Origin: Candidatus Thiothrix singaporensis
GTDB taxonomy: Bacteria; Pseudomonadota; Gammaproteobacteria; Thiotrichales; Thiotrichaceae
DNA: 10,244 bases
Assembly: GCA_013693955.1 (NCBI GenBank)
Contig: CP059265.1
Coordinates: 3,872,031 to 3,882,274 of the forward strand
Direction of reading: 5' to 3'
Shown: piece after piece, positions 1-10,244 of the stretch
Numbering within the stretch: the stretch's first letter is position 1
Layout: each line of letters begins with the position of its first letter
Made by a program: the position numbers and the translations under genes
Notes under the pieces: model-generated
What the model was told of the DNA's origin: nothing
The model's input: only the letters and a program-made list of their open reading frames with translations
The model's database searches: none

Positions 1-336
1 GGGTTGGATACGGTTGTCGGGCGGCAGGGCATGCGCCTGTCCGGCGGGCAGCGGCAGCGGCTGGCGATTGCGCGCATGATTTTGTCCGAGCCGAGCGTGG
101 TCATCCTGGATGAGGCCACCTCGGCGCTGGATATGGAAACCGAACAGAAATTGCACGCCGCCATGGGCGCATTCCTGCAAGGGCGCACCACCCTGATCGT
201 GGCGCACCGCCTGAGCGCAGTGCGTCAGGCGGATCACATTTTCGTGTTCGAGGACGGGCGCATCAGTGAGCAGGGGAGTCATCAGGAGTTGCTGTCGCAG
301 GATGGCCTGTACCGGAAGCTGTACGGGGAGGCGTGA
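1..336 (+). CDS. ABC exporter ATPase, C-terminal part (5' end outside window)
   Basis: This is the last 111 codons of a nucleotide-binding domain that hydrolyses ATP to drive a membrane exporter. It enters the window already in frame. The ABC signature LSGGQRQR is at residues 13-20. Walker B with the catalytic glutamate ([12 protein letters not shown]) is at 33-44 and includes the SALD D-loop. The switch histidine is in VAHRL, with His at residue 69. The tail [11 protein letters not shown] is typical of ATPases fused to a transmembrane domain (MsbA/LapB/HlyB-like type I exporters). No motif is damaged and the gene ends in TGA. The substrate cannot be told from this fragment. The 3' end overlaps the convergent creD reading frame by 74 bases, and no terminator hairpin is evident between them. 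Confidence 0.93.
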
Positions 337-1686
337 CCCCATTGCCCGCCGTCAGCGCATACCAGTCGAAATGGCGGGTCGCCAGCATCAGCGCCGCCAG
401 CACGGCGAAGACCAGCACGCTGCCCATCAGCAGGGCGTTGTCCTCCGCTTGTAGGATCACGTACAGCAACGTGTACACCGCCAGCCCAGCGCCGAGCAGT
501 AGCCCCAACTTGCGGCTGCGCAGGATCGCGCCGAAATACAGTGTCAGCAGGCCGGTGCTGGCCAGCGCCGCCGCCCCATACGCCCCCAGGAAGGCGATGT
601 GTTCCGACAGTGAAATCAGCAGCAGGTAGAACACCAGCAGCGCCATCCCCACCAGGGTGTATTGCACCGGATGCACCCGCAGTTTCTTCAGCAGTTCAAA
701 CAGGATCAGCGCCACGAAGGTCAGCACGATGAACAGCGCGGCGTATTTGATGCTGCGTTCCGACTGCTGGTACACATCCACTGGCTGGAGCAGGTCGAAG
801 CCGACCGCACGCTCCAGCAGCCCGGCGCATTCGCCCTTGCCGCATTGTTCCAGCGCGCCGCTGACGTTGTAGGAAAACGCGGACGCCTTCCAATGGGCGC
901 TGAAGCCGCTGGCGGTCACATCGCGGGTTTCCGGCAGCAATTCGCCGCTGAAGCTGGGATGCGGCCAGTTGGCGCTGAGTTGCACGTCGCTGTTGTCGGC
1001 CAGCAGGGCGAAATTCATCGCGCGCATCCCGCGCAATTCCATGTCGAAGGCAAACGGCAGGCGGGTGGGCTGGGTCAGGTCGATGGCGGGCAGTTTGGCG
1101 TGCATCCCGGCGCTGGCGCTGCCGGGCAGGTCGTTGCCGGGCTGGAAGGCCAGCGGCGCGCCATTCCATTGCAAGGCGGGCGGGCTGGCGACGCCGCGCT
1201 GGTCGCGCACCATGACCGACAGTTGCGGCGTTTTCCAGCGGATTTGCGCATCCTTGTTGCTGGCCAGCAGATCAAACAGCGGCTGGGTGTTGAATTCGCC
1301 CGCAACCTGCAAGGCGCTGGCGTAGACCGGCGCAGCGTAAATGCCCCGGTAGCGCAGCGAGCTTTGCAGTTTGCTGCGGATGGCCAACTGGCTGGGGAGC
1401 AGGTAGAGGGCGTCTTCGTCGGTCACTTCGCGCAGCACTTCGCGTTCCTTGCCGTCCTTGTCCTTGACGGTTTCGCGGGTGTTGTAGGTGCGTTGGTAAG
1501 GCACGGCCAGCACCTACTCGGCGAGGGTCTGCGCCCCCGGCCAGCTCTGGCCGATGCTCTGGTAGGCTTGCTCACGCCAGCTGGCGCGTTCCCCCACCAG
1601 CCCCAGCATGAAGGCTTGCGGATCAGCAATAGCAGGGTCAAAAAGGCGATGATGGCGAGTTTGAGGTAGAAACGCTGGTTTGGCAC
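263..1686 (-). pseudogene. creD: creD family inner-membrane protein, disrupted by a 1-nt deletion and an amber codon
   Basis: CreD is an inner-membrane protein of the CreBC regulon, linked in enterobacteria to envelope integrity and colicin/phage tolerance. A GTG start at 1686-1684 has a good AAGGAG site 6-7 bases upstream and begins MPNQRFYLKLAIIAFLTLLLL, an N-terminal membrane helix. Near 1620 the frame is lost. Restoring one base in the ATCCGCAAG stretch rejoins PQAFMLGLVGERASWREQ and SIGQSWPGAQTLAE. An in-frame TAG at 1516-1514 then precedes VLAVPYQRTYNTRE, and the rest is open to the TGA at 265-263. The C-terminal half has about five hydrophobic helices and the family tail LQAEDNALLMGS...ATRHFDWYAL. 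Repaired, it would be about 474 residues, near 450 without the last 24, which lie antisense to the ABC gene. Identity is confident. Whether the lesions are real or sequencing errors is open. Confidence 0.85.
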
Positions 1687-2246
1687 GGGAGGCTCCTTGT
1701 TCTAAGTGACTGGTTGCCTCAATCATAAAAAATGATTATTGAGAATTGGCGGGCGGGCTGTGGAAAAACGGTGGAGCGGGGTGCAGGTTTGGTGCAGGGG
1801 CGAAAAGCGATGAGTAGAACTTTTTCCTGTGGCAAGCTTTTAAGCAGTTATTTGGCTGGCGGCGGAAGATATTTGACAGGCTCTGGTTACGGCCAGAACG
1901 GCCACCGCTTGGTTAAACTTTGCAGCGGCTCGGTCGCAAAGTATCCAACGTTGTTGGCATGGGGGAGATGAGAACCACCAAGATGAAACCGGGAAAGCAT
2001 GGACGCATGTTGGAAAATGTGATGAGCTATTGAGATGACGAAAGAAATCACAAGAATTTTCAATGCAATGAACATCCCCGCCGCAAGCAGCGGGGTATCA
2101 CTTCACTCCGCTCGCACACGGTGTGGCTCGCTACGTTCAACAGCGCCTTTCGACGCTGTTTGAAAAATCGCCCCAAGGGGCGGGGAATAAGACCCGAAGC
2201 GATTTAAGCATCGAACTAAACCAAACTTACCGTTGAATTTTTTGGC
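1687..2246. other. Intergenic stretch without a convincing gene
   Basis: The left part holds the creD ribosome binding site and an AT-rich stretch (about 1721-1747) with the inverted pair AATCAT/ATGATT, possibly part of the creD promoter region. I see no good -35/-10 pair. Short open frames exist on both strands but none has a recognisable protein or a proper ribosome binding site. A 26-base stretch near 1886-1911 resembles the Rhs sequence at 2780-2805 and may be a small remnant. The palindrome cluster at 2076-2182 is listed separately. The frame covering 2072-2236 is open and ends 10 bases before the next ATG. Confidence 0.6.
2076..2182. repeat. Cluster of four short palindromes
   Basis: Four inverted repeats lie one after another: CCCCGC/GCGGGG (2076-2081 with 2090-2095), CACAC/GTGTG (about 2115-2125), AACAGCG/CGCTGTT (2139-2145 with 2154-2160), and the nearly loopless CGCCCCAAGGGGCG (2169-2182). 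None is followed by a clear T-run, so this is not a textbook terminator. It looks like a structured intergenic repeat (REP-like) or the remains of a mobile element. It may lie at the left border of the Rhs array. Confidence 0.55.
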
Positions 2247-2641
2247 ATGGATGATTATGAAATTGGCGCTGTAAAAACGCTAGATGAACAAACTAGAGAA
2301 GGATTAAATTCTGATTTTTGGAAGATAATTATGATATTTTTTCCTTATTCCTTCTGATGTATTTTTGTATTTTTGCCGGGGATTTTTCGGTGTGGTATTG
2401 AAGACGATTGCCGAGGATTACTTGTAAACCACTCAATTGTCAGTGAGCTAGATAGGAGTCTTTCACTAGAATATTGGAATAGCTCTCTTATTGACAGATT
2501 GGGAAACTTAACTGAGGAAGAATACGGAGTGGTTGAAGAATGGTTGATCTGGCTTGTTTCAAATCAAGAAAAATATTTTCTGATAATTCGATTGATAGAG
2601 CATTGGAGACGCTAAGTTTGTTGCGCTCTAGGCATCGTTGA
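2247..2641 (+). pseudogene. Broken small gene, probable orphan immunity gene
   Basis: An ATG at 2247 opens MDDYEIGAVKTLDEQTREGL...FFPYSF, which is stopped by an in-frame TGA at 2355-2357. The same frame then continues with FVFLPGIFRCGIED... and LTEEEYGVVEEWLIWLVSN. At the T-run 2576-2579 a one-base deletion is implied, because the shifted frame gives the better ending (SDNSIDRALETLSLL) and stops at 2639-2641. Repaired length is about 130 residues. The protein is acidic and AT-rich in codon use, with the LT...WL...A pattern seen in small immunity-type proteins. I could not assign a family. Its position just before an Rhs cassette, like the partner genes of the other cassettes, suggests an immunity gene whose toxin has been lost. 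No clear ribosome binding site precedes the ATG. Confidence 0.5.
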
Positions 2642-2667
2642 CCTCTGAAAATGAAGATCAAAAGAAT

Positions 2668-2707
2668 CAGACCCGATTGGTTGTCTGGTAAGGCATCCAA
2701 TTTTGCC
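2668..2707 (+). repeat. Cassette-junction repeat, copy 1
   Basis: About 40 bases shared with 5931-5968 and 7656-7697, each time at the 5' edge of a displaced Rhs piece and leading into the conserved CCTACGCGGGCTACCGCC stretch. In the Rhs frame it reads close to RPDWLSGKASNF. It marks a common left boundary of three of the cassettes. Confidence 0.6.
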
Positions 2708-3249
2708 TGTCCTACGCGGGCTACCGCCCGGACGGGCAGCCCAGCGCGCAAATGTATGGCAATGGGGAAGCAATCGGCCATGATTACGGCCAGAGCGGCA
2801 ACCGCCTCAACAACGGCAGCAACGCTTATGCCTATGTCGCCAACAGCAACCGCATGGATGCCCGCAAAGGCATCACCCTCAGCCGTGATGCCGCTGGCAA
2901 CCACACCAGCAACGGGCTGGGGCAAACCTACGCCTGGGACGGCCACGGCCACCTCAGCCAGTTCAGCCTGAACGGCGTCCAGAAAGCGACCTATTTCTAC
3001 AACTACCAGCACCAGCGCACCCACAAAACCCAGGAACGGCTCCACCGCGCTGGGGACAACGGTCTACCACTATGACCTGCAAGGCCGCCTGCTGATGGAG
3101 ACCAGCAGTACGGGTACTGTGCTCGCCACCTATATCTACGATGAAGCCGGGACGCCGCTGGCCATCCTCCAGGCGGCCAACAGCCCCTACAATGCGACCG
3201 CGCAGGATCAGGTTGTGTACCTTCACACCGACCACCCGGCACGCCGCGC
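2668..3249 (+). pseudogene. Displaced Rhs core fragment, cassette 1 (frameshifted 5' part)
   Basis: This is a promoterless internal piece of an Rhs (YD-repeat) protein, whose core forms the shell that encloses a toxic C-terminus. It carries the junction repeat and then MYGNGEAIGHDYGQSGNRLNNGS and GLGQTYAWDGHGHLSQF, typical YD-repeat sequence. Compared with cassette 4 it lacks about 190 bases; the join falls at a CGGCNACCGC sequence that occurs twice in cassette 4. Two further lesions are seen by comparison with the other copies. A 2-nt loss near 3027 (CACAAAACCCAGGAACGG) shifts the frame before TTVYHYDLQGRLLMETSS. A 1-nt loss near 3236 (GACCACCCGG instead of GACCACCTCGG) shifts it again before GTPRMATDSNRR. 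No start codon or ribosome binding site is evident, as expected for an orphan module. Confidence 0.8.
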
Positions 3250-3500
3250 ATGGCGACCGACAGCAACCGGCGCATCGTCTGGAAGTGGGAATCGGACGCC
3301 TTCGGCACCACCGTCCCACAGCAAGACCCGAATGGCGACGGCAAGCAGACCATTGTCAACCTGCGCTTTCCGGGGCAGTATTACGACGCCGAATCCGGCC
3401 TGCACCAGAACTGGCACCGGACGTATGACCCCAGTCTGGGGCGCTACATCAGCAGTGATCCGATTGGCTTGGCGGGTGGGGTGAATACTTATGGGTATGT
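3059..3500 (+). repeat. Rhs core 3'-end repeat, copy 1 (442 bp)
   Basis: One of four nearly identical copies of about 443 bp (others at 4335-4777, 6320-6762 and 8242-8684). This one is a base shorter because of the deletion near 3236. It covers TVYHYDLQGRLL through YGYV of the RHS repeat-associated core. Sequence is unrelated between copies immediately downstream. Confidence 0.85.
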
Positions 3501-3930
3501 GGCAAATGAACCTATCAATTGGGCTGACCCGTCAGGATTGGAGAAACTTATATTGTTTCCTCAGAAAACACCTGAGTATTTGGCCGCACAATCTGTTCCA
3601 GATACTCCGGGCTTGTTGACGGTCTATGCGCATGGAAATGAAAATGTAGTGTCTTCTACACCCGAAGCAACCAATAAAATGGACGCGCAAGCGTTGAAAG
3701 ATAGGATCATAAATGACGTAAATTATACAGATGGGATGCCTATTCAGTTGATGAGTTGCAATGCAGGGTCTGGAGATCATCCTATTGCCGAACAGCTGGC
3801 GAACTTGATGGATACACCTACAAGTGTGAGCGGATACGATGGGTATGTAGTTTATTTACCAAAGACTCCGCTAAATTCAGCGATTGTATCTCCATTTCCT
3901 TGGGCATCTAATAATTCTTATAAAAAATGA
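3250..3930 (+). CDS. Rhs core end fused to a His-Cys peptidase-like C-terminal toxin, cassette 1
   Basis: The 226-codon open frame continues the Rhs core after the second frameshift, so the ATG at 3250 is probably not a natural start. Residues 1-96 are the RHS repeat-associated core (FPGQYYDAESGL, YDPSLGRYISSDPIGLAGG, ending at DPSG, residues 93-96). The rest is the variable tip of about 130 residues. It contains TVYAHGNE (His at residue 128) and IQLMSCNAGSG (Cys at residue 170), followed by AEQLANLM. This histidine and SCN-G spacing is the pattern of clan CD-type cysteine peptidase-like domains (C80/CHAT style) found at Rhs tips. A proteolytic role is inference. The tip is AT-richer than the core and undamaged. 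Its TGA overlaps the next gene by ATGA, as is usual for a toxin and its immunity partner. Confidence 0.75.
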   Translation: MATDSNRRIVWKWESDAFGTTVPQQDPNGDGKQTIVNLRFPGQYYDAESGLHQNWHRTYDPSLGRYISSDPIGLAGGVNTYGYVANEPINWADPSGLEKLILFPQKTPEYLAAQSVPDTPGLLTVYAHGNENVVSSTPEATNKMDAQALKDRIINDVNYTDGMPIQLMSCNAGSGDHPIAEQLANLMDTPTSVSGYDGYVVYLPKTPLNSAIVSPFPWASNNSYKK

Positions 3931-4196
3931 TGGGTATGAAAAATGGAATTAACAATATGGATGATTCTTCCGATTGTATTTTTGGAGTGGCGCGTTTAGT
4001 CTTTAGACAAATTGTGAAAGCTGAGAAGGTATGGCTCTTTATTGGTGCGGTAATACTATCAATGTGGTTTTACCTGTTCTTCAGGCCAACGTGTGGCTGT
4101 ATAGGTATAGATCAAATTATGGGGGCGTTAATGTTGGCGCTCCCATTCAATCTGGTTGTTTTTCTATTGCATTTATTTTGGCCTATTTTTGGTTGA
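3927..4196 (+). CDS. Two-helix membrane protein, probable immunity to the cassette-1 toxin
   Basis: The 89-codon frame overlaps the toxin stop by four bases (ATGA), which suggests translational coupling. The first 30 or so residues are polar. Residues 36-54 (VWLFIGAVILSMWFYLFF) and about 66-88 (MGALMLALPFNLVVFLLHLF) are strongly hydrophobic, so an inner-membrane protein with two helices is expected. A start at 3957 (MDDSSDCIF) is also possible, since the upstream GGA sits at a usable distance and the first ATGs lack a clear ribosome binding site. I do not recognise the family. Immunity function is inferred only from position. A membrane location would fit a toxin acting at or beyond the membrane. 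It is one of two genes in the array with no visible lesion. Confidence 0.6.
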   Translation: MMGMKNGINNMDDSSDCIFGVARLVFRQIVKAEKVWLFIGAVILSMWFYLFFRPTCGCIGIDQIMGALMLALPFNLVVFLLHLFWPIFG

Positions 4197-4226
4197 AGGT
4201 AGAAAATTCGGGCAAGAACTCAGAGC

Positions 4227-5299
4227 CACCAGCAAGCAGGAAACCCTGACGCTCCGGACGGCAACAGGCTGCCTACACCTACGACAGCAGCCTGCCGCTT
4301 GCAACGCTGGGTCGGTGCAAACGCCCTCGGCATAACGGTCTACCACTACGACCTGCAAGGCCGCCTGCTGATGGAGACCAGCAGTGCGGGAGCCGTGCTC
4401 GCCACCTATATTTACGATGAAGCCGGGACGCCGCTGGCCATCATCCAGGCGGCCAACAGCCCCTATAACGCGACCGCGCAGGATCAGGTTGTGTACCTGC
4501 ACACCGACCACCTCGGCACGCCGCGCATGGCGACCGACAGCAACCGGAGCATCGTCTGGAAGTGGGAATCGGACGCCTTCGGCTCCACCGTCCCGCAGCA
4601 AGATCCGGATGGCGACGGCAAGCAGACCATTGTCAACCTGCGCTTTCCGGGGCAGTATTATGATGCTGAGTCCGGCCTGCACCAGAACTGGCATCGCACC
4701 TATGACCCCAGCCTAGGGTGCTACATCAGCAGTGACCCGATTGGGCTGGCGGGCGGGGTGAATATTTATGGGTATGTGTTAAACGACCCTGTCAATCTGA
4801 TGGATTTAGAGGGTAATCTGCCTTCTCTGCCTCAAGGTGTGGTTGATGCTGCGGCCGGATTTGGTGATGGTTTGACCGGAGGCCTCACCAGTTCCGCGCG
4901 TGACATGTTGGATGTGGATGGTGGTGTGAATGAATGCAGCGACACTTACCATGTCGCAGAAGTGGTCGGAGAATACTGGCCTACCAGTCGTGGGCAGCAT
5001 GGGTATAACATCGTTAAGTCTGCCATAAAAATACAACGGAGCGACCCGCCGGTTTTAGGAAAAACTGTTCAAGATGCTTAGGATAATGCTACTGATGGTA
5101 GTAGACCAGAACTAAAGCCTGCCCCGATTGTGGGAAAGATGTTGAAGTTGCTCCGGTCAAGGACGTCGAGATTGATGTTGATCATCAACCTAAATGGAAG
5201 GATAGGGATTTGAGCGGTATGGATAGAAAACAAGTGTTGGATGAATACAACAAGGATGTACGGTTACGTTGTCCAACTTGTAACCGTTCTGATAACTGA
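4227..5299 (+). pseudogene. Displaced Rhs fragment with HNH nuclease C-terminus, cassette 2
   Basis: The 5' edge (4227-4307) reads as another Rhs stretch (DAPDGNR, then YTYDSS in a shifted frame) joined to the common core at WVGANALGITVYHYD. The frame 4299-5081 is open through the RHS core (SSDPIGLAGG, variant junction MDLEG near residue 169) and the linker VVDAAAGFGDGLTGGLTS common in Rhs tips. It ends at TAG 5079-5081. Beyond that the same frame reads DNATDGSRPEL; after one missing base near 5114 the next frame gives ACPDCGKDVEVAP, DVDHQPKWKDRDLSG and VRLRCPTCNRSDN, ending in TGA 5297-5299. The CPDC and CPTC pairs and VDH (His codon 5183-5185) mark an HNH/beta-beta-alpha-metal nuclease with structural zinc, which would cut DNA in target cells. 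As it stands, the amber codon and frameshift remove the nuclease. It abuts the SUFU-like gene. Confidence 0.8.
4335..4777 (+). repeat. Rhs core 3'-end repeat, copy 2 (443 bp)
   Basis: Same repeat as at 3059-3500. This copy carries the LLMETSS variant shared with copy 1 and the GSTVPQQ and TATGATGCTGAGTCC variants shared with copy 4. It alone has CYISSDP instead of RYISSDP. Confidence 0.85.
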
Positions 5300-5854
5300 T
5301 GAGTCAATCTATGAATATTATTGAACACGCTGAATTATTTCTCGGCAAAGTTTCACAAGGATGGAAAGAGAGGCTTGCATTTAGTGGATTGCAAGTGGTG
5401 TGCTTCAAGAATAACCCGTTTGAATCTGTTGATACTTTTCTGACAGTGGGTTTGAGCTACCATGAATTGGAGGTATCTAACGTAAAGAAAGTTCGTCAGG
5501 AACTACTTTTTCATCTATCCAGTACGGGAAAGGCGGAAATTGTAGTTTTATTTCTACTCTTCATTTGTGATTTGATCCTGAAAGATCACAGGGCATTACT
5601 GGGGGCAGGTAATACGCTTCCCAACGGATATGGCTCAAAAGCTTGGATTTGATGCGGTATATTGTGCAATTCCGGTATTTCTGGAAGATGATTTTGCAAC
5701 TTTTAACGGTTCGCAACCACCTACAGTTATTGTCTGGACTATCCCTATATACACCAGCGAAGCAGATTATGTTGATTTAAATGGTTGGAGTAAGTTTGAA
5801 GATTTATTGGAAGAAAGATCCACCGACTTATTTTCTTTGGACGTAAACCAATAA
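5299..5854 (+). pseudogene. SUFU-like immunity gene, one-base frameshift
   Basis: The ATG at 5299 overlaps the TGA of the HNH toxin frame (TGATG). The first part (117 codons, ending 5652) has ESVDTFLTVGLSYHELEV, VRQELLFHLS and DHRALLGAGNTLPNGYGSKA. The shifted frame from about 5640 continues GFDAVYCAIPVFLEDDFATF, TVIVWTIPIYTSEADYV and GWSKFEDLLEE, ending at TAA 5852-5854. Together they make about 185 residues of a suppressor-of-fused (SUFU)-like domain. In polymorphic toxin systems this family serves as immunity protein, often beside nuclease toxins, which suits the HNH partner. One extra base in the stretch AAAAGCTTGGATTT (about 5636-5649) accounts for the break. Removing one T after GCT restores the frame. 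Confidence 0.8.
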
Positions 5855-5876
5855 TTTGATGGTGAATGTTGTGCCC

Positions 5877-6004
5877 CGTGAGATCCTTCTTAACGTGGAA
5901 CGCGACAGCCTCGGTGCATGGCTACGTGTCAAGACCCGATTGATTATCCGGTAAGGCATCCGACTTTGCTGCTGGCCGTCCGGCCTACGCGGGCTACCGC
6001 CTGA
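5877..6004 (+). pseudogene. Rhs junction remnant before cassette 3
   Basis: A short frame reads REILLNVERDSLGAW, resembling the RE-I-L---ERD-LG motif that recurs in Rhs YD repeats. It then runs into the junction repeat (5931-5968) and the conserved YAGYR stretch. The junction peptide RPDWLSGK is interrupted here, because the tryptophan codon is TGA. An extra stretch of about 14 bases (around 5969-5982) sits between junction repeat and core and includes an inverted pair (GGCC...GGCC). A TGA at 6002-6004 separates this remnant from the open core frame that follows. Confidence 0.55.
5931..5968 (+). repeat. Cassette-junction repeat, copy 2
   Basis: Second copy of the roughly 40-base boundary sequence, starting AAGACCCGATTGATTATCCG. 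It differs from copy 1 at a few positions, including TGG to TGA in the Rhs frame. Confidence 0.6.
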
Positions 6005-7223
6005 CGGCCAGCCCAGCGTGTCTTCGCCAATCAAAGCTTTGGCTATGACCTCAACGGCAACCGCCTCAACAACGGCAGCAACGCTTATACCTACGTCGCC
6101 AACAGCAACCGCATGGATACCCGCAAAGGCATCACCCTCGGTCGTGATGCCGCTGGCAACCACACCAGCAACGGGCTGGGGCAAACCTACGCCTGGGACG
6201 GCCACGGCCACCTCAGCCAGTTCAACCTGAACGGCGTCCAGAAAGCGACCTATTTCTACAACTACCAGCACCAGCGCACCCACAAAAACCTGTGGAACGG
6301 CTCCACCGCGCTGGGGACAACGGTCTACCACTACGACCTGCAAGGCCGCCTGCTGAGGGAAACCAGCAGTACGGGAGCCGTGCTCGCCACCTATATTTAC
6401 GATGAAGCCGGGACGCCGCTGGCCATCATCCAGGCGGCCAACAGCCCCTATAATGCGACCACGCAGGATCAGGTTGTGTACCTGCACACCGGCCACCTCG
6501 GCACGCCGCGCATGGCGACCGACAGCAACCGGCGCATAGTCTGGAAGTGGGAATCGGACGCCTTCGGCACCACCGTCCCGCAGCAAGACCCGGATGGCGA
6601 CGGCAAGCAGACCATTGTCAACCTGCGCTTTCCGGGGCAGTATTACGACGCCGAATCCGGCCTGCACCAGAACTGGCACCGGACGTATGACCCCAGTCTG
6701 GGGCGCTACATCAGCAGTGATCCGATTGGCTTGGCGGGTGGGGTGAATGCTTATGGGTATGTGGGGCAGAGTCCTTTAAATTTAATTGATCCTAGTGGGG
6801 AAAATGCTTTAGCAGTGGAAGCAGCGGAGGAATTTGGCTATTTTGTTGGAAGTAAAGCCGTTGCTCCATTGATAAATTGGGGTATTGCAACTGCTACAGG
6901 TGTTGCTGGTGCAACTTTGGGTACTTGGGCATATGACATTACTCACCCGGAAAGTGAAAATGCAGATACAACATGGGTAATAAATGAAAATTCGAACGAC
7001 GATGGTGCCCAGTGCCCTGATGAAGGTAATCCAGACGATAAAAAGCTTTCTGAGGGTGAAATAGACAAACTTAAAGATGCAGGGATAAATCCCCATGATT
7101 TGAAACCTAAAAGGGTGGATCGAAATTTGATTTATTCAAAAACAGGAATGGAGATATCATTGTCAAACCTAGAAAAGGAAACTACCTGGTGATCCAACAG
7201 GCTTGAATATAAATGATTTTTAG
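6005..7223 (+). pseudogene. Displaced Rhs fragment with polymorphic toxin type 33-like C-terminus, cassette 3
   Basis: The frame is open from 6005 to TGA 7190-7192 and covers FANQSFGYDLNGNRL, the YD repeats and the full RHS repeat-associated core, ending at IDPSGE (6788-6802). About 210 bases present in cassette 4 are missing before FANQSF. The tip has a hydrophobic segment (WGIATATGVAGATLGTWAYD), a linker, then KLSEGEIDKLKDAGINPHDL from 7043. At about 7115 the frame must shift by one base to read GSKFDLFKNRNGDIIVKPRKGN. A second shift near 7182 gives GDPTGLNINDF, ending at TAG 7221-7223. LS-GEI-KLK-AG-DPH-LK, then KYDLFKDK-G-I-VKP and GDPTGLNIND is the pattern of polymorphic toxin type 33. 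The biochemical activity of that family is not something I can state. As sequenced, the last 35 residues are replaced. Confidence 0.8.
6320..6762 (+). repeat. Rhs core 3'-end repeat, copy 3 (443 bp)
   Basis: Same repeat as at 3059-3500. It carries LLRETSS as in copy 4, but GTTVPQQ and TACGACGCCGAATCC as in copy 1. Unlike the others, it has HTGHLG instead of HTDHLG and NATTQD instead of NATAQD. Confidence 0.85.
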
Positions 7224-7232
7224 GGTGCTCTA

Positions 7233-7635
7233 ATGGAAAATTACGTTCGTTTGATGGTTCTCAGTGAGAGTATTTCTCCTGAACAAATTAGTAATCAAAT
7301 CGGTATGCTTGGAGATGAAACTTGGAGGATTGGCGATAAGAGGAAAAACGCGGCTATTTTAGAAAAAGAAAATGGTTGGCTCCTTTTTCAAAAAAGAAAA
7401 AATCATGGATTTAGAAGATCATATTGATAATATCAGGAATCTTATAAGAGGTTATGAAAATAATTTCAAGATTATGTCAGATTTTTATAATTGCGAGGTG
7501 CAACTTTCATGTGCTATTTATTATAAGCGTGAGCCTCCGTTATTTTTTGAGAAAGAGATCATTGCCTGGTTAAACAGCATGGGGGCGTCTTTAGATATAG
7601 ATCTCTATTTATCTGGGGATGGAGGCAAAACTTAA
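7233..7635 (+). pseudogene. DUF4279-like immunity gene, one-base frameshift
   Basis: It starts 9 bases after the repaired toxin end with AGGGTG upstream of the ATG. The first frame, ENYVRLMVLSESISPEQISN...GDETWRIGDKR...ENGWLLF, breaks in the run CTTTTTCAAAAAAG (7383-7396). The shifted frame continues KKEKIMDLEDHIDNIRNLIRG, EVQLSCAIYYKR, FFEKEIIAWLNSMGASLDIDLY and ends at TAA 7633-7635. One extra T (or A) explains the break, and the repaired length is about 133 residues. The layout (an opening strand with SP-EI, G--W--G, W-L, a helix with L--H, then L-S-GASLDIDLY) matches DUF4279, a small domain often encoded beside Rhs-type toxins. Immunity to the cassette-3 toxin is inferred from position. 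It is AT-rich, unlike the core. Confidence 0.7.
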
Positions 7636-7655
7636 GTGCAGACTTGCCAAAAGTG

Positions 7656-7697
7656 TCAGACCTGATCGGTTATCTGGTAAGACACCCAATTTTTTGG
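7656..7697 (+). repeat. Cassette-junction repeat, copy 3
   Basis: Third copy of the boundary sequence (TCAGACCTGATCGGTTATCT and following), only about 20 bases after the DUF4279-like stop. Here the Rhs frame is open through it and reads VRPDRLSGKTPNFLAYAGYRPDG. Confidence 0.6.
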
Positions 7698-8241
7698 CCT
7701 ACGCGGGCTACCGCCCGGACGGTCAGCCCAGCACGCAAATGTATGGCAATGGAGACGTAATCAGTCATGATTACGACGACCGAAGCGGCCACCGCACCGC
7801 TACGCTGCGTTTAACCAGCAGTGGATTCCGTGAGTGGCTGACATGGAACCTGGAAGGCGAACTGGTAAACCCACCGTCGGCAGCAGCAGCCCAGCTCTGT
7901 ACCAGTATGACGATCTGGGGCGGCTGCAGCTGGAGAACAACGCCTTCGCCAATCAAAGCTTTGGCTATGACCTCAACGGCAACCGCCTCAGTAACGGCAG
8001 CAACGCTTATACCTACGTCGCCAACAGCAACCGCATGGATGCCCGCAAAGGCATCACCCTCAGCCGTGATGCCGCTGGCAACCACACCAGCAACGGCTTG
8101 GGTCAAACCTACGTATGGGATAACCACGGCCACCTCAGCCAGTTCAACCTGATCGGTGTCAAGAAAGCCACCTATCTCTACAACGCTCAGCACCAGCGCA
8201 CCCACAAGAACCTGTGGAACGGCTCCACCGCGCTGGGGACA

Positions 8242-8684
8242 ACGGTCTACCACTACGACCTGCAAGGCCGCCTGCTGAGGGAAACCAGCAGTACGGGAGC
8301 CGTGCTCGCCACCTATATTTACGATGAAGCCGGGACGCCGCTGGCCATCATCTAGGCGGCCAACAGCCCCTATAATGCGACCGCGCAGGATCAGGTTGTG
8401 TACCTGCACACCGACCACCTCGGCACGCCACGCATGGCGACCGACAGCAACCGGCGCATCGTCTGGAAGTGGGAATCGGACGCCTTCGGCTCCACCGTCC
8501 CGCAACAAGACCCGGATGGCGACGGCAAGCAAACCATTGTCAACCTGCGCTTTCCGGGGCAGTATTATGATGCTGAGTCCGGCCTGCACCAGAACTGGCA
8601 TCGCACCTATGACCCCAGCCTGGGGCGCTACATCAGCAGTGACCCGATAGGGTTGGATGGTGGGTTGAATACCTATGGGTATGT
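8242..8684 (+). repeat. Rhs core 3'-end repeat, copy 4 (443 bp)
   Basis: Same repeat as at 3059-3500. It shares LLRETSS with copy 3 and GSTVPQQ with copy 2. It holds the C-to-T change that creates the TAG at 8353-8355. Its end has drifted to GLDGGLNTYGYV. Confidence 0.85.
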
Positions 8685-9287
8685 GGGGCAGAGTCCGCTG
8701 ATGAACACTGACCCTAGTGGGTTGTGTCCAATTTGTGCTGCGGGTTTAGCTTTTCTTGAGGGGCTGGTACGACAACAACAACGGCAGCCACCAGCACAAG
8801 TTTTTTTGGGACATTTTGGGGTGCTGGTGCTTTAGTTGGAGGCGGTCTTGCAGTTTCAGCTTTACCAGGGGATGCCTCCGATATACCTTCATGGGAGCCG
8901 AGGCCGGGAGTCACGCACCCAGAACATGATGAAGTTAGAGAGGCTGGACAGTGCACTAATACGGGAGATGGTAATTATTGTTATAGATTAGCGTTGAGCA
9001 TCGATATTATTGTTAGAGACTTAAAATTTAGACATTGGGATTTACAGACGAATTTTTCTACTAAAAGATATTATGACCAAGACCATATCACTAGATATAA
9101 TGGTGAGAAGGAAATTTTAGCTAAATTAGTAAAGGCTGCTAAAAGCCATGAATGTCCTTATAATCCAGAAGCTGATGTGGAAATTAATCGAGGTTATAAG
9201 TTTGGTTATCCAGTAAAGAGCTATTAACATTACAATAAATCTAACCACCCTGATATTGGGTAGTCTAATAACCATGGAGTTTTAAAA

Positions 9288-9767
9288 ATGTATGCATTAT
9301 GCACATTATCTGAAAGCATTATCTTACAATTAGACTCAAGTTCTGGAGGTTTATGCCTATACCAACGTAAAATAAGTGAAGAGTCTTCTGGTCATCCAAC
9401 TTTGCTGGGTAACTTCAATTCGTTTGCTAGTGCCATCAAATTTTTAAAAATAAAAAAAAGAATCGATAGATGACTATGATTTTATCAATTTCGAAATAGT
9501 ACTATGTGAACATTTTAAGACTTACAAGGATAACTTGTACTATTTTGATAAATTTAGGCCAGATACGTTTGCAAACGTAGCATTCGCAATAAATTCTGTA
9601 TATGTTCAAAGATTTTCTATAGAAATTTTTAATCTAATTAAATTTATCTCAATGCAAAAACATGATCTATTGCTCTCCTTTTTAAAAAAGAAGTTGATCC
9701 CGATGGCAAATATTATTCTAGTTTTATTGATTGTAGAGACTTTATTAATTCATTTGATTTAGTATGA
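9288..9767 (+). pseudogene. Immunity-position gene of cassette 4, family not recognised, two frameshifts
   Basis: The ATG at 9288 has a GGAG site 8 bases upstream and lies 60 bases after the toxin stop. The first frame is YALCTLSESIILQLDSSSGG...FNSFASAIKFLKIKK. After the run of eight A's (9452-9459) it must shift to continue SIDDYDFINFEIVLCEHFKT, YYFDKFRPDTFANVAFAINS and HDLLLSF. At TTTTTAAAAAAG (9679-9690) it shifts back to KKEVDPDGKYYSSFIDCRDF, then INSFDLV, ending at TGA 9765-9767. Removing one A and adding one T gives an uninterrupted protein of about 159 residues. The ending in the first frame again supports this reading. It is very AT-rich. I know no family for it. Immunity to the Ntox16-like tip is inferred from its position. 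Confidence 0.6.
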
Positions 9768-9779
9768 ATTTCGCCTAAA

Positions 9780-10002
9780 TCAACCGGCGGCATCCGTGAG
9801 TGGCTGACATGGAACCTGGAAGGCGAACTGGAAAGCCGCACCGTCGGCAGCAGCGCGCTCTGTACCAGTATGACGCCCTGGGGGCGGCTGCGGCTGGAGA
9901 ACAACGCCTTCGCCAACCAAAGCTTTGGCTATGACCTCAACGGCAACCGCCTCAGCAACGGCAGCAACGTTTATACCTACGTTGCCAACACCAACCGGAT
10001 GG
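9780..10002 (+). pseudogene. Truncated Rhs core fragment, cassette 5
   Basis: About 220 bases match cassette 4 from REWLTWNLEGELE through NNAFANQSFGYDLNGNRLSN to YTYVANTNRM, then the similarity stops abruptly at about 10002. No RHS core end, tip or immunity gene follows. A base is missing near 9862 and an extra G sits in the G-run near 9890; the two cancel, so only a dozen codons are out of frame. The frame then runs on into unrelated sequence to TGA 10059-10061. It starts about 13 bases after the cassette-4 immunity gene and lacks the junction repeat. It marks the right end of the visible array. Confidence 0.75.
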
Positions 10003-10063
10003 GCCACCTTTGCTGTGTACAGGACTCAGCTGCTTGGTTTCACCTGTTGTTGCACTCATGAAT

Positions 10064-10093
10064 CAATGTTTGCAACAATGTTGGAGCAACATT
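10064..10093. promoter_or_regulatory. Operator-like inverted and direct repeat upstream of the regulator gene
   Basis: The perfect inverted repeat AATGTTG-GAG-CAACATT (10077-10093) lies 17 bases before the ATG at 10111. CAATGTT also occurs as a direct repeat at 10064-10070 and 10076-10082. Such symmetry close to the start of an HTH gene suggests an autoregulatory binding site. A hairpin affecting translation is an alternative. I could not place a convincing -35/-10 pair. Confidence 0.4.
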
Positions 10094-10110
10094 CACCGAA
10101 GGTGCCCATC

Positions 10111-10244
10111 ATGCTGACAGAGAGGCGGCAATCCATCCTGAACCTGTTCCTGCGGGAGCCTGAGGCCAGTTTGGGTGTGGGGGATTTGCTCCCTTATGTT
10201 GAGGTCGGGCGAACCACCCTGTTCCGTGATTTGAGCGCGATGGT
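10111..10244 (+). CDS. DeoR-like HTH transcriptional regulator, N-terminus (3' end outside window)
   Basis: The ATG at 10111 follows a GAAGG site with usual spacing. The 44 visible codons read MLTERRQSILNLFL, then SLGVGDLLPYVEVGRTTLFR, then DLSAMV. The opening R---IL--L helix, followed by a short turn and the recognition helix V-R-TLFRDLS, is the winged-helix pattern of DeoR-type regulators (compare VS--T--RDL). The effector domain lies beyond the edge, so the ligand and the exact family are unknown. A Fic-type or other HTH fusion protein cannot be excluded. The GC content returns to that of the left-edge chromosomal genes, so this is probably the first gene outside the Rhs array. Confidence 0.65.
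   Translation, partial: MLTERRQSILNLFLREPEASLGVGDLLPYVEVGRTTLFRDLSAM

What the first reader, a model, noticed from the sequence alone, without database searches (positions are those of the whole stretch)
2247..10002. Serial array of four displaced Rhs toxin-tip cassettes plus an orphan partner and a core stub
Four consecutive core-tip-immunity units, each with a different tip and partner, stand head to tail without any full-length rhs gene. Orphan rhsCT/immunity modules are established for Rhs and CDI loci, but five units in under 8 kb, flanked by ordinary chromosomal genes and with no parent rhs in view, is a rich record of tip replacement.
Basis: partly seen in the sequence, partly recalled or inferred. 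Interest (0 to 1): 0.72.

Follow-up and report, generated by a model that had tools for sequence, protein, structure and literature searches.

The report
Parentless array of Rhs toxin tips
A sulfur-oxidising bacterium carries a long, partly broken row of swappable toxin-tip and protector gene pairs, several joined by the same short repeat sequence, with no complete toxin gene found to carry them.

Summary
Window 2247-10002 contains four head-to-tail Rhs core-tip-partner units with unrelated tips, an orphan partner before them and a core stub after them. It is only the left third of an array of about 26 kb with 12 core remnants and several transposases. The genome length, 4,541,730 bases, is that published for the 'Candidatus Thiothrix singaporensis' SSD2 MAG.

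No full-length parent of this core family was found in the assembly (91% complete); the longest copy starts at residue 145 of the sister core. Of 15 congeners only Thiothrix lacustris has this core over a long stretch (two units, also no parent), at a site where this genome keeps only small, partner-like genes and a core stub.

Five array junctions plus that stub share one fused boundary: an arm related to RAYT/REP repeats joined to the same core position, behind six different genes. This suggests shuffling by recombination through a repeated repeat-plus-core module rather than independent displacements. One arm also sits at the unrelated second Rhs locus, but in six other Rhs-bearing congeners none does. 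The kind, an orphan Rhs array, is known; the missing parent and the shared boundary make it a variant. Function is inferred.

The parts
2247..2615 (+). U0: orphan partner-gene fragment (open ORF 2373-2615, 80 aa; earlier part in another frame); no core or tip before it
   Evidence: no Pfam family; unlike all other units
2666..2706 (+). REP/RAYT-like arm fused to core (boundary of U1)
2709..3534 (+). U1 Rhs core remnant with an internal deletion and frame breaks
3535..3930 (+). U1 tip, about 131 aa, open; no Pfam family above cut-off; same tip in U11 (93% identical, outside window)
3927..4196 (+). U1 partner (89 aa, hydrophobic by eye)
   Evidence: no family
4308..4805 (+). U2 Rhs core remnant (sister-core residues 415-584)
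4806..5299 (+). U2 tip, in two frames; second piece 5162-5296 is a GH-E HNH/ENDO VII nuclease
   Evidence: E 5.9e-12
5299..5854 (+). U2 partner, SUFU family, in two frames
   Evidence: E 1.4e-6 and 2.9e-7
5932..5972 (+). REP/RAYT-like arm fused to core (boundary of U3), followed by a 10-bp insert that makes an inverted repeat
5973..6793 (+). U3 Rhs core remnant (sister-core residues 324-584)
6794..7192 (+). U3 tip, Ntox33-like (just under the curated cut-off), frame apparently broken near the end
   Evidence: E 2.1e-5, 25.4 vs 28.4 bits
7233..7635 (+). U3 partner, DUF4279, in two frames
7655..7695 (+). REP/RAYT-like arm fused to core (boundary of U4)
7696..8712 (+). U4 Rhs core remnant (sister-core residues 239-585, one TAG and one frame break)
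8713..9227 (+). U4 tip, in several frames; the piece tested (8994-9224) matches no family
9288..9762 (+). U4 partner, apparently in two frames; first piece matches no family, second not tested; related gene behind U8 outside the window
9793..10002 (+). U5 core stub (sister-core residues 281-357)

Best explanation
This is a parentless Rhs orphan array. Its units consist of a constant, GC-rich part (the 3' part of an Rhs core, in five units headed by a REP-like arm) and a variable, AT-rich insert (toxin tip plus presumed immunity partner). It most likely began as ordinary C-terminal displacement, in which an old tip is pushed downstream when a new one recombines onto the core. One early displaced boundary fused a REP arm, lying behind a partner gene, to core codon about 244. 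That fused boundary then gave cassettes homology on both sides. Crossing-over between copies, within or between strains and possibly through circles as Jackson et al. proposed, could then concatenate, duplicate and reshuffle cassettes without new illegitimate joins. The full-length parent was lost, the ancestral site between the AAA/vWA gene pair and the DUF4143 gene was reduced to small partner-like genes and a core stub, and the array is now eroding under insertion sequences. Partner genes may still be kept as protection against kin toxins. Shown: structure, shared boundary, no parent in the assembly, orthologous site. Inferred: mechanism, order of events, that the T. lacustris site is the ancestral one, immunity function.
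For: 9 of the genome's 12 Rhs_assc_core hits lie in the array. No copy in this family reaches residues 1-144 of the T. lacustris core. Junctions of U1, U3, U4, U8, U13 and the 295.8-kb stub align as one fused boundary, behind six genes or gene remnants without detectable similarity to each other. In this genome 5 of 5 hits of the arm pattern at <=2 mismatches are at Rhs boundaries (reversed-pattern control 0); the pattern was written from array and T. lacustris junctions, so only the fifth hit, at the second Rhs locus with another core, is an independent find. The arm consensus stands as an inverted pair before a Y1_Tnp gene in a congener. Orthologous site. T. lacustris units are flanked by a 116-bp direct repeat of the upstream gene's 3' end, 97%, as integration of a circle by one crossover would leave. 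Duplicated units.
Against: The test for mosaic cores is weak (p 0.009 with 40-bp spacing, 0.16 with 80 bp; a second, shorter alignment gave 0.6 and 1.0). No strain-level comparison of the array exists here, so no exchange was seen happening. Other boundaries (U2/U12 and U5/U9) do not carry the arm; at locus 2 only the third core has one. In the six other Rhs-bearing congeners (G002, G004, G008, G009, G012, G013) 0 of 36 arm-pattern hits are near an Rhs core: the nearest is 181 kb away, and some lie on contigs without one. The shared boundary could partly reflect plain tandem duplication. No transposase of the arm's family was found in this genome (single query without a positive control). Frame breaks may be real decay or polishing errors in repeats.
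Confidence: 0.55

Rival explanations
1. Classic C-terminal displacement only: each unit was pushed downstream of a full-length rhs by a separate event, and the parent at the 5' end was later deleted.
For: Same core family in every unit, mostly unrelated AT-rich tips, head-to-tail order, as in enterobacterial and Snodgrassella arrays (passages read).
Against: Six junctions share one fusion point within about 15 bp; the longest core (U6) is in the middle of the array; cores differ by up to 12.5% in the compared parts, whereas the dissociated cores in the E. coli and Serratia loci of Jackson et al. were always identical within a locus.
Confidence: 0.25
2. RAYT/REP-assisted breakage: nicking at REP arms behind partner genes repeatedly produced truncated cores at those sites.
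For: REP arm at boundaries of two unrelated Rhs core families in this genome and at the T. lacustris boundary.
Against: In six other Rhs-bearing congeners 0 of 36 pattern hits are near an Rhs core; REP arms generally lie behind genes (recalled), so the position may be incidental; no family transposase found here; the array junctions share one origin, which leaves only two or three independent cases. Lowered from 0.12 to 0.08.
Confidence: 0.08
3. Assembly artefact: repeats were misjoined or duplicated by the metagenome assembler.
For: MAG; the cited source is titled as a study of Nanopore long-read metagenomes; scattered Ns in the neighbourhood, though none in the window; creD beside the array has an in-frame stop.
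Against: Core copies differ (mostly 83-98% identical, one short pair 78.5%), carry different inserts and different deletions; T. lacustris, sequenced independently, has the same kind of units.
Confidence: 0.06

Closest known systems
Rhs arrays formed by C-terminal displacement (Jackson et al. 2009, PMC2935791; passages read)
   Same: Conserved GC-rich core fragment, variable AT-rich tip, small partner gene, head-to-tail array, one core family per locus.
   Different: No intact parent found here; cores diverged; shared REP-core boundary; several IS insertions; a decayed remnant at the site orthologous to the T. lacustris locus.
Orphan cdiA-CT/cdiI arrays of CDI loci (Poole et al. 2011, PMC3150448; passages read)
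   Same: Long rows of toxin-immunity remnants (eleven pairs in E. coli EC869), some IS-interrupted, modules shared between strains.
   Different: CdiA/VENN systems behind cdiBAI genes; here Rhs core and no front gene.
Orphan-only Rhs repertoires of Gilliamella apicola (Steele and Moran 2021, PMC8125069; passages read)
   Same: Toxin tips with partners but no full-length Rhs in the genome.
   Different: There the authors suggest acquisition as defence; here the core remnants and the orthologous site point to an own former locus (inference).
T6SS immunity gene arrays of Vibrio cholerae (Kirchberger et al. 2017, PMC5361080; seen in search listing with start of abstract only)
   Same: By its title, sequential displacement leaving immunity genes behind, as inferred for the 292-296.6 kb site.
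   Different: Other species and effector genes.

Membership tests
Rhs C-terminal displacement array | Rhs-associated core directly before each tip | tested here: met
   TIGR03696 in 9 array units incl. the four window units
Rhs C-terminal displacement array | Tips unrelated between units, AT-rich against GC-rich core | tested here: met
   (duplicate pairs U1/U11 and U4/U8 are exceptions; the U7 tip/partner is 54% GC)
Rhs C-terminal displacement array | Partner gene after each tip that is its immunity gene | tested here: inconclusive
   SUFU for U2, SUKH-1 for U7, DUF4279 for U3 (that SUFU and SUKH are immunity families is recalled); others unknown; neutralisation needs an experiment
Rhs C-terminal displacement array | Intact full-length rhs at the 5' end of the array | tested here: not met
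   No copy covers residues 1-144 of the sister core; upstream neighbour is a creD-like gene
Rhs C-terminal displacement array | All core fragments belong to one core family | tested here: met
   87-98% pairwise identity in the aligned parts; lowest blast pair 78.5% over 135 bp
RAYT/REP repeat element (for the boundary arm) | Same sequence flanks a Y1/RAYT transposase gene as an inverted pair in a relative | tested here: met
   L082: pair of 27-bp arms before a 240-aa Y1_Tnp protein, E 1.8e-15; the one array arm scored carries 4 mismatches in 27 (U13), the others were not reported by that scan
RAYT/REP repeat element (for the boundary arm) | Cognate transposase in the host genome | tested here: inconclusive
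   None found with one query, no positive control in this genome
T6SS-delivered Rhs effector | N-terminal delivery domain (PAAR or similar) on the Rhs protein | tested here: not met
   No N-terminal part found; a VgrG homologue exists elsewhere at 4013833. Full-length relatives in another Thiothrix start with a lipoprotein-like signal by eye

The most novel reading that the evidence does not exclude
In this species, and perhaps in T. lacustris, Rhs cassettes are exchanged as units bounded on both sides by a repeated REP-core module: a REP arm trapped behind a partner gene became a standing recombination boundary, so that toxin-partner pairs can be shuffled like spacers between repeats, even after the delivery gene is lost.
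Probability: 0.16. Interest if true: 0.65.

Novelty: new variant of a known kind. Interest (0 to 1): 0.4.

Why it matters
It gives a case where the junctions, not only the tips, record how orphan toxin arrays grow, and it makes the displacement model testable: shared versus independent boundaries. It also shows an orthologous site in which partner-like genes seem to outlast the toxins, as expected if immunity is what selection keeps.

Tried and rejected
Full-length parent elsewhere: searched by DNA, by two family profiles and by the sister core protein; none found. Second Rhs locus (2.698-2.705 Mb) as parent: rejected, only 32-37% protein identity to this core.

Empty-site test at creD: inconclusive. 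creD-like genes above 55% identity were found in 14 of 15 congeners; 13 regions were fetched (G002's lies at a contig end and was left out). ABC transporter-creD adjacency is kept in 5 of the 13. None has the array's right flank on the array's side of creD; in G009 two right-flank genes lie next to creD but on its other side. Only 11-15-bp matches were found between the array's flanks.

Viral origin: no relative of the core in viral contigs (4 stretches matched a pattern, none confirmed). Plasmids hold distant Rhs cores; the best listed row covers 54% of the query at 70%.

Promoter- and terminator-like sites of window 1700-10244: not above shuffles.

Decay versus error: 6 breaks in 2167 core codons (counted by hand) against 2 in 3432 codons of eight reference hits (one creD stop counted through two references, so really 1), Fisher p 0.06; not conclusive.

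My impression that this tip has caspase-like HG and SC motifs is recalled and untested.

The approximate regular-expression scans missed known diverged arms and are used only for positives they printed.
Full report
WHERE IT IS. The window is G000:C1:3872031-3882274 (+) of a 4,541,730-base single contig, 91% complete. A published 'Candidatus Thiothrix singaporensis' SSD2 MAG is a single contig of exactly 4,541,730 bases, and the paper's source for it is titled as a study of Nanopore long-read metagenomes (PMC7767063, abstract, passages and one reference). The identification rests on that length and on the genus (T. lacustris is the best named relative of the core). Genome coordinate = window + 3872030.

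OBSERVATION. Four core-tip-partner units (U1-U4), a partner fragment in front and a core stub behind are present as described. The array continues outside the window. U6 (3883395-3885147, the longest core) follows a Fic-family gene. U7 (3890723-3892068) follows transposases. U8 appears to be a U4-like unit interrupted by an IS1-type transposase. U9 has a 93-bp insert in its core. U10 and U11 appear to be two halves of one core around an IS3-type transposase, followed by the U1 tip and partner again. U12 follows, and U13 is a stub ending at about 3900303 next to an IS3-type remnant. That makes 12 core remnants, 13 if the halves U10 and U11 are counted apart.

TIPS AND PARTNERS. U2 has a GH-E nuclease piece and a SUFU partner; U3 an Ntox33-like tip slightly under cut-off and a DUF4279 partner; U7 a SUKH-1 partner. 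The other tip and partner pieces tested match no family above cut-off. In an all-against-all comparison of the non-core stretches the only related pairs within the array are U1/U11 and U4/U8; U12's partner resembles the gene behind the 295.8-kb stub, and the U2 tip start resembles tips of the second Rhs locus; shared mobile repeats gave further hits. Weak relatives of the U1 tip occur in 3 plasmid-collection records labelled Escherichia (34-38% identity over 63-72% of the tip). In the window, tips and partners of U2, U3 and U4 are split by frame changes; U1's tip is open.

NO PARENT FOUND. The genome has 12 Rhs_assc_core hits: 9 here and 3 at 2.698-2.705 Mb with a different core. Searching with the 585-residue T. 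lacustris core finds nothing of residues 1-144 in this family (the weak match to residues 63-225 at 2703692 belongs to the other locus). Of six related loci outside Thiothrix, four hold the core in open frames of 1550-2053 aa (L049, L050, L052, L054); two are short or cut (L051, L053). In another Thiothrix (G012) four genes are 1265-1419 aa. So only the last quarter to third of such a protein survives here.

SISTERS. Among 16 genomes of the genus (this one included), 8 have Rhs_assc_core hits. Only T. lacustris (G005) has this core by DNA over more than a short stretch (82%, two copies; G012 and G006 give only 119- and 28-bp matches); its longest open frame is 749 aa, so no full-length parent was found there either. 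Its two units stand between a gene pair (AAA ATPase and vWA protein, names recalled; Pfam gave nothing for this genome's copy of the second) and a DUF4143 AAA gene. The unit cluster is bounded by a 116-bp direct repeat of the 3' end of the upstream gene (97%), with a further 58-bp copy behind the DUF4143 gene. The orthologous place in this genome, 289.4-298 kb, has the same neighbours (76.5 and 77.9% DNA identity) but only small ORFs, a REP-core stub at 295815-295930 and a gene related to U12's partner. None of the 5 small proteins tested there matches Pfam, so calling them partner genes rests on position and, for one, on similarity to U12.

THE BOUNDARY. U1, U3, U4, U8, U13 and the 295.8-kb stub carry the same join: a repeat arm, about 20 further bases, then core from about residue 244 ('YAGYRPDG'). 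U3 and U13 share an extra 10-bp insert that creates an inverted repeat. The genes before the arm show no similarity to each other in the six cases. The arm's consensus, AATCAAAGGGGTCAGACTCGATTGATT, occurs as inverted pairs before a Y1_Tnp (RAYT-type) gene in G009. Over the 16 genomes the relaxed pattern has 55 hits in 15 genomes, against 17 for the reversed control, so single hits may be chance. In this genome 5 of 5 are at Rhs boundaries: U1, U4, U8, U13 and the third copy of the second locus, where a partner-like ORF, a one-mismatch arm and a truncated core follow each other directly. The pattern was written from array and T. lacustris junctions, so the second-locus hit is the only independent one. 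In T. lacustris 1 of 3 is at an Rhs boundary. In the six other congeners with Rhs genes 0 of 36 hits are near an Rhs core, the nearest being 181 kb away. Because the array cases share one origin, there are two or at most three independent cases; the association is suggestive for this species and not supported as a rule of the genus.

MECHANISM. A single origin of the boundary, followed by spread together with the core, best explains six equal joins behind different genes. Copies of REP arm plus core lie before several units and core lies before every tip, so homologous recombination between units or strains can place any partner before any tip. Jackson et al. proposed homologous recombination with circular intermediates for displacement (PMC2935791, passages). 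The 116-bp direct repeats around the T. lacustris units would fit integration of a circle by one crossover. A simple mosaicism test on the nine 3' core copies (34 informative sites) gives p 0.009 or 0.16 depending on the spacing used; a second alignment of seven copies had only 5 sites and showed nothing. Recombination inside cores is therefore only weakly supported by that test.

STATE. The array looks like a relic with possibly useful partners. Cores show more breaks than neighbouring genes, but the difference is not significant and polishing errors in repeats are a fair alternative. Whether partners protect against kin toxins is untested. A VgrG homologue exists in the genome, but nothing links it to these tips.

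KNOWN OR NEW. Orphan Rhs and CDI arrays are well known: long arrays downstream of an intact gene (PMC8125069, PMC5727410, PMC2935791), eleven orphan pairs in one CDI locus (PMC3150448), and genomes with orphan toxins only (PMC8125069). For all of these I read passages only. I found no paper on REP or RAYT repeats at Rhs boundaries (19 papers hold both words, 12 listed, none on the subject by title; 16 papers, 12 listed, none on it by title) and one paper naming both Thiothrix and Rhs, on mobile elements and resistance genes in treated wastewater (listing only). These searches cover open-licence PMC papers only.

One search was added; it counts against the repeat as a general boundary device. 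I lowered the novel reading from 0.20 to 0.16, the RAYT-breakage rival from 0.12 to 0.08 and interest from 0.42 to 0.40.

Noticed in passing
window 10111-10244 and on to genome 3883364 (L013 2141-3364): Fic-family gene between U5 and U6 with 14.8 perfect tandem copies of a 9-bp unit (Gly-Ala-Ile run), which could make it length-variable.
   Followed up: partly
L055 11069-11184 and 15967-16082 (T. lacustris): 116-bp direct repeat of a gene's 3' end around the Rhs units, third partial copy at 17423-17480: looks like repeated integration at one gene end; no integrase noticed among the listed ORFs, not searched for.
   Followed up: partly
genome 3885178, 3885935, 3894095, 293605, 294565: 93-bp repeat, five copies seen in the stretches compared, one inside the U9 core, two in opposite orientation around a small ORF at the 293-294 kb site: probably a miniature transposable element.
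   Followed up: no
L087, L057 (G012 574-604 kb): Another Thiothrix has a tandem row of full-length Rhs genes starting with a lipoprotein-like signal by eye, one apparently interrupted by a transposase with DDE_Tnp_1_assoc.
   Followed up: no
L122 (G009 4017000-4032000): REP pairs between repeated AAA-like and lipoprotein-like genes (by eye), period about 3.4 kb.
   Followed up: no
window 263-1726 (-): creD-like gene (name recalled) next to the array has an in-frame TAG at about 1516 and a likely frame change near its start: either decay or an assembly error.
   Followed up: partly
L015 8454-15576 (genome 2.698-2.706 Mb): Second Rhs locus with three cores of another family, a transposase-like ORF within, and one REP arm before the third core; two of its tips begin like the U2 tip.
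   Followed up: partly
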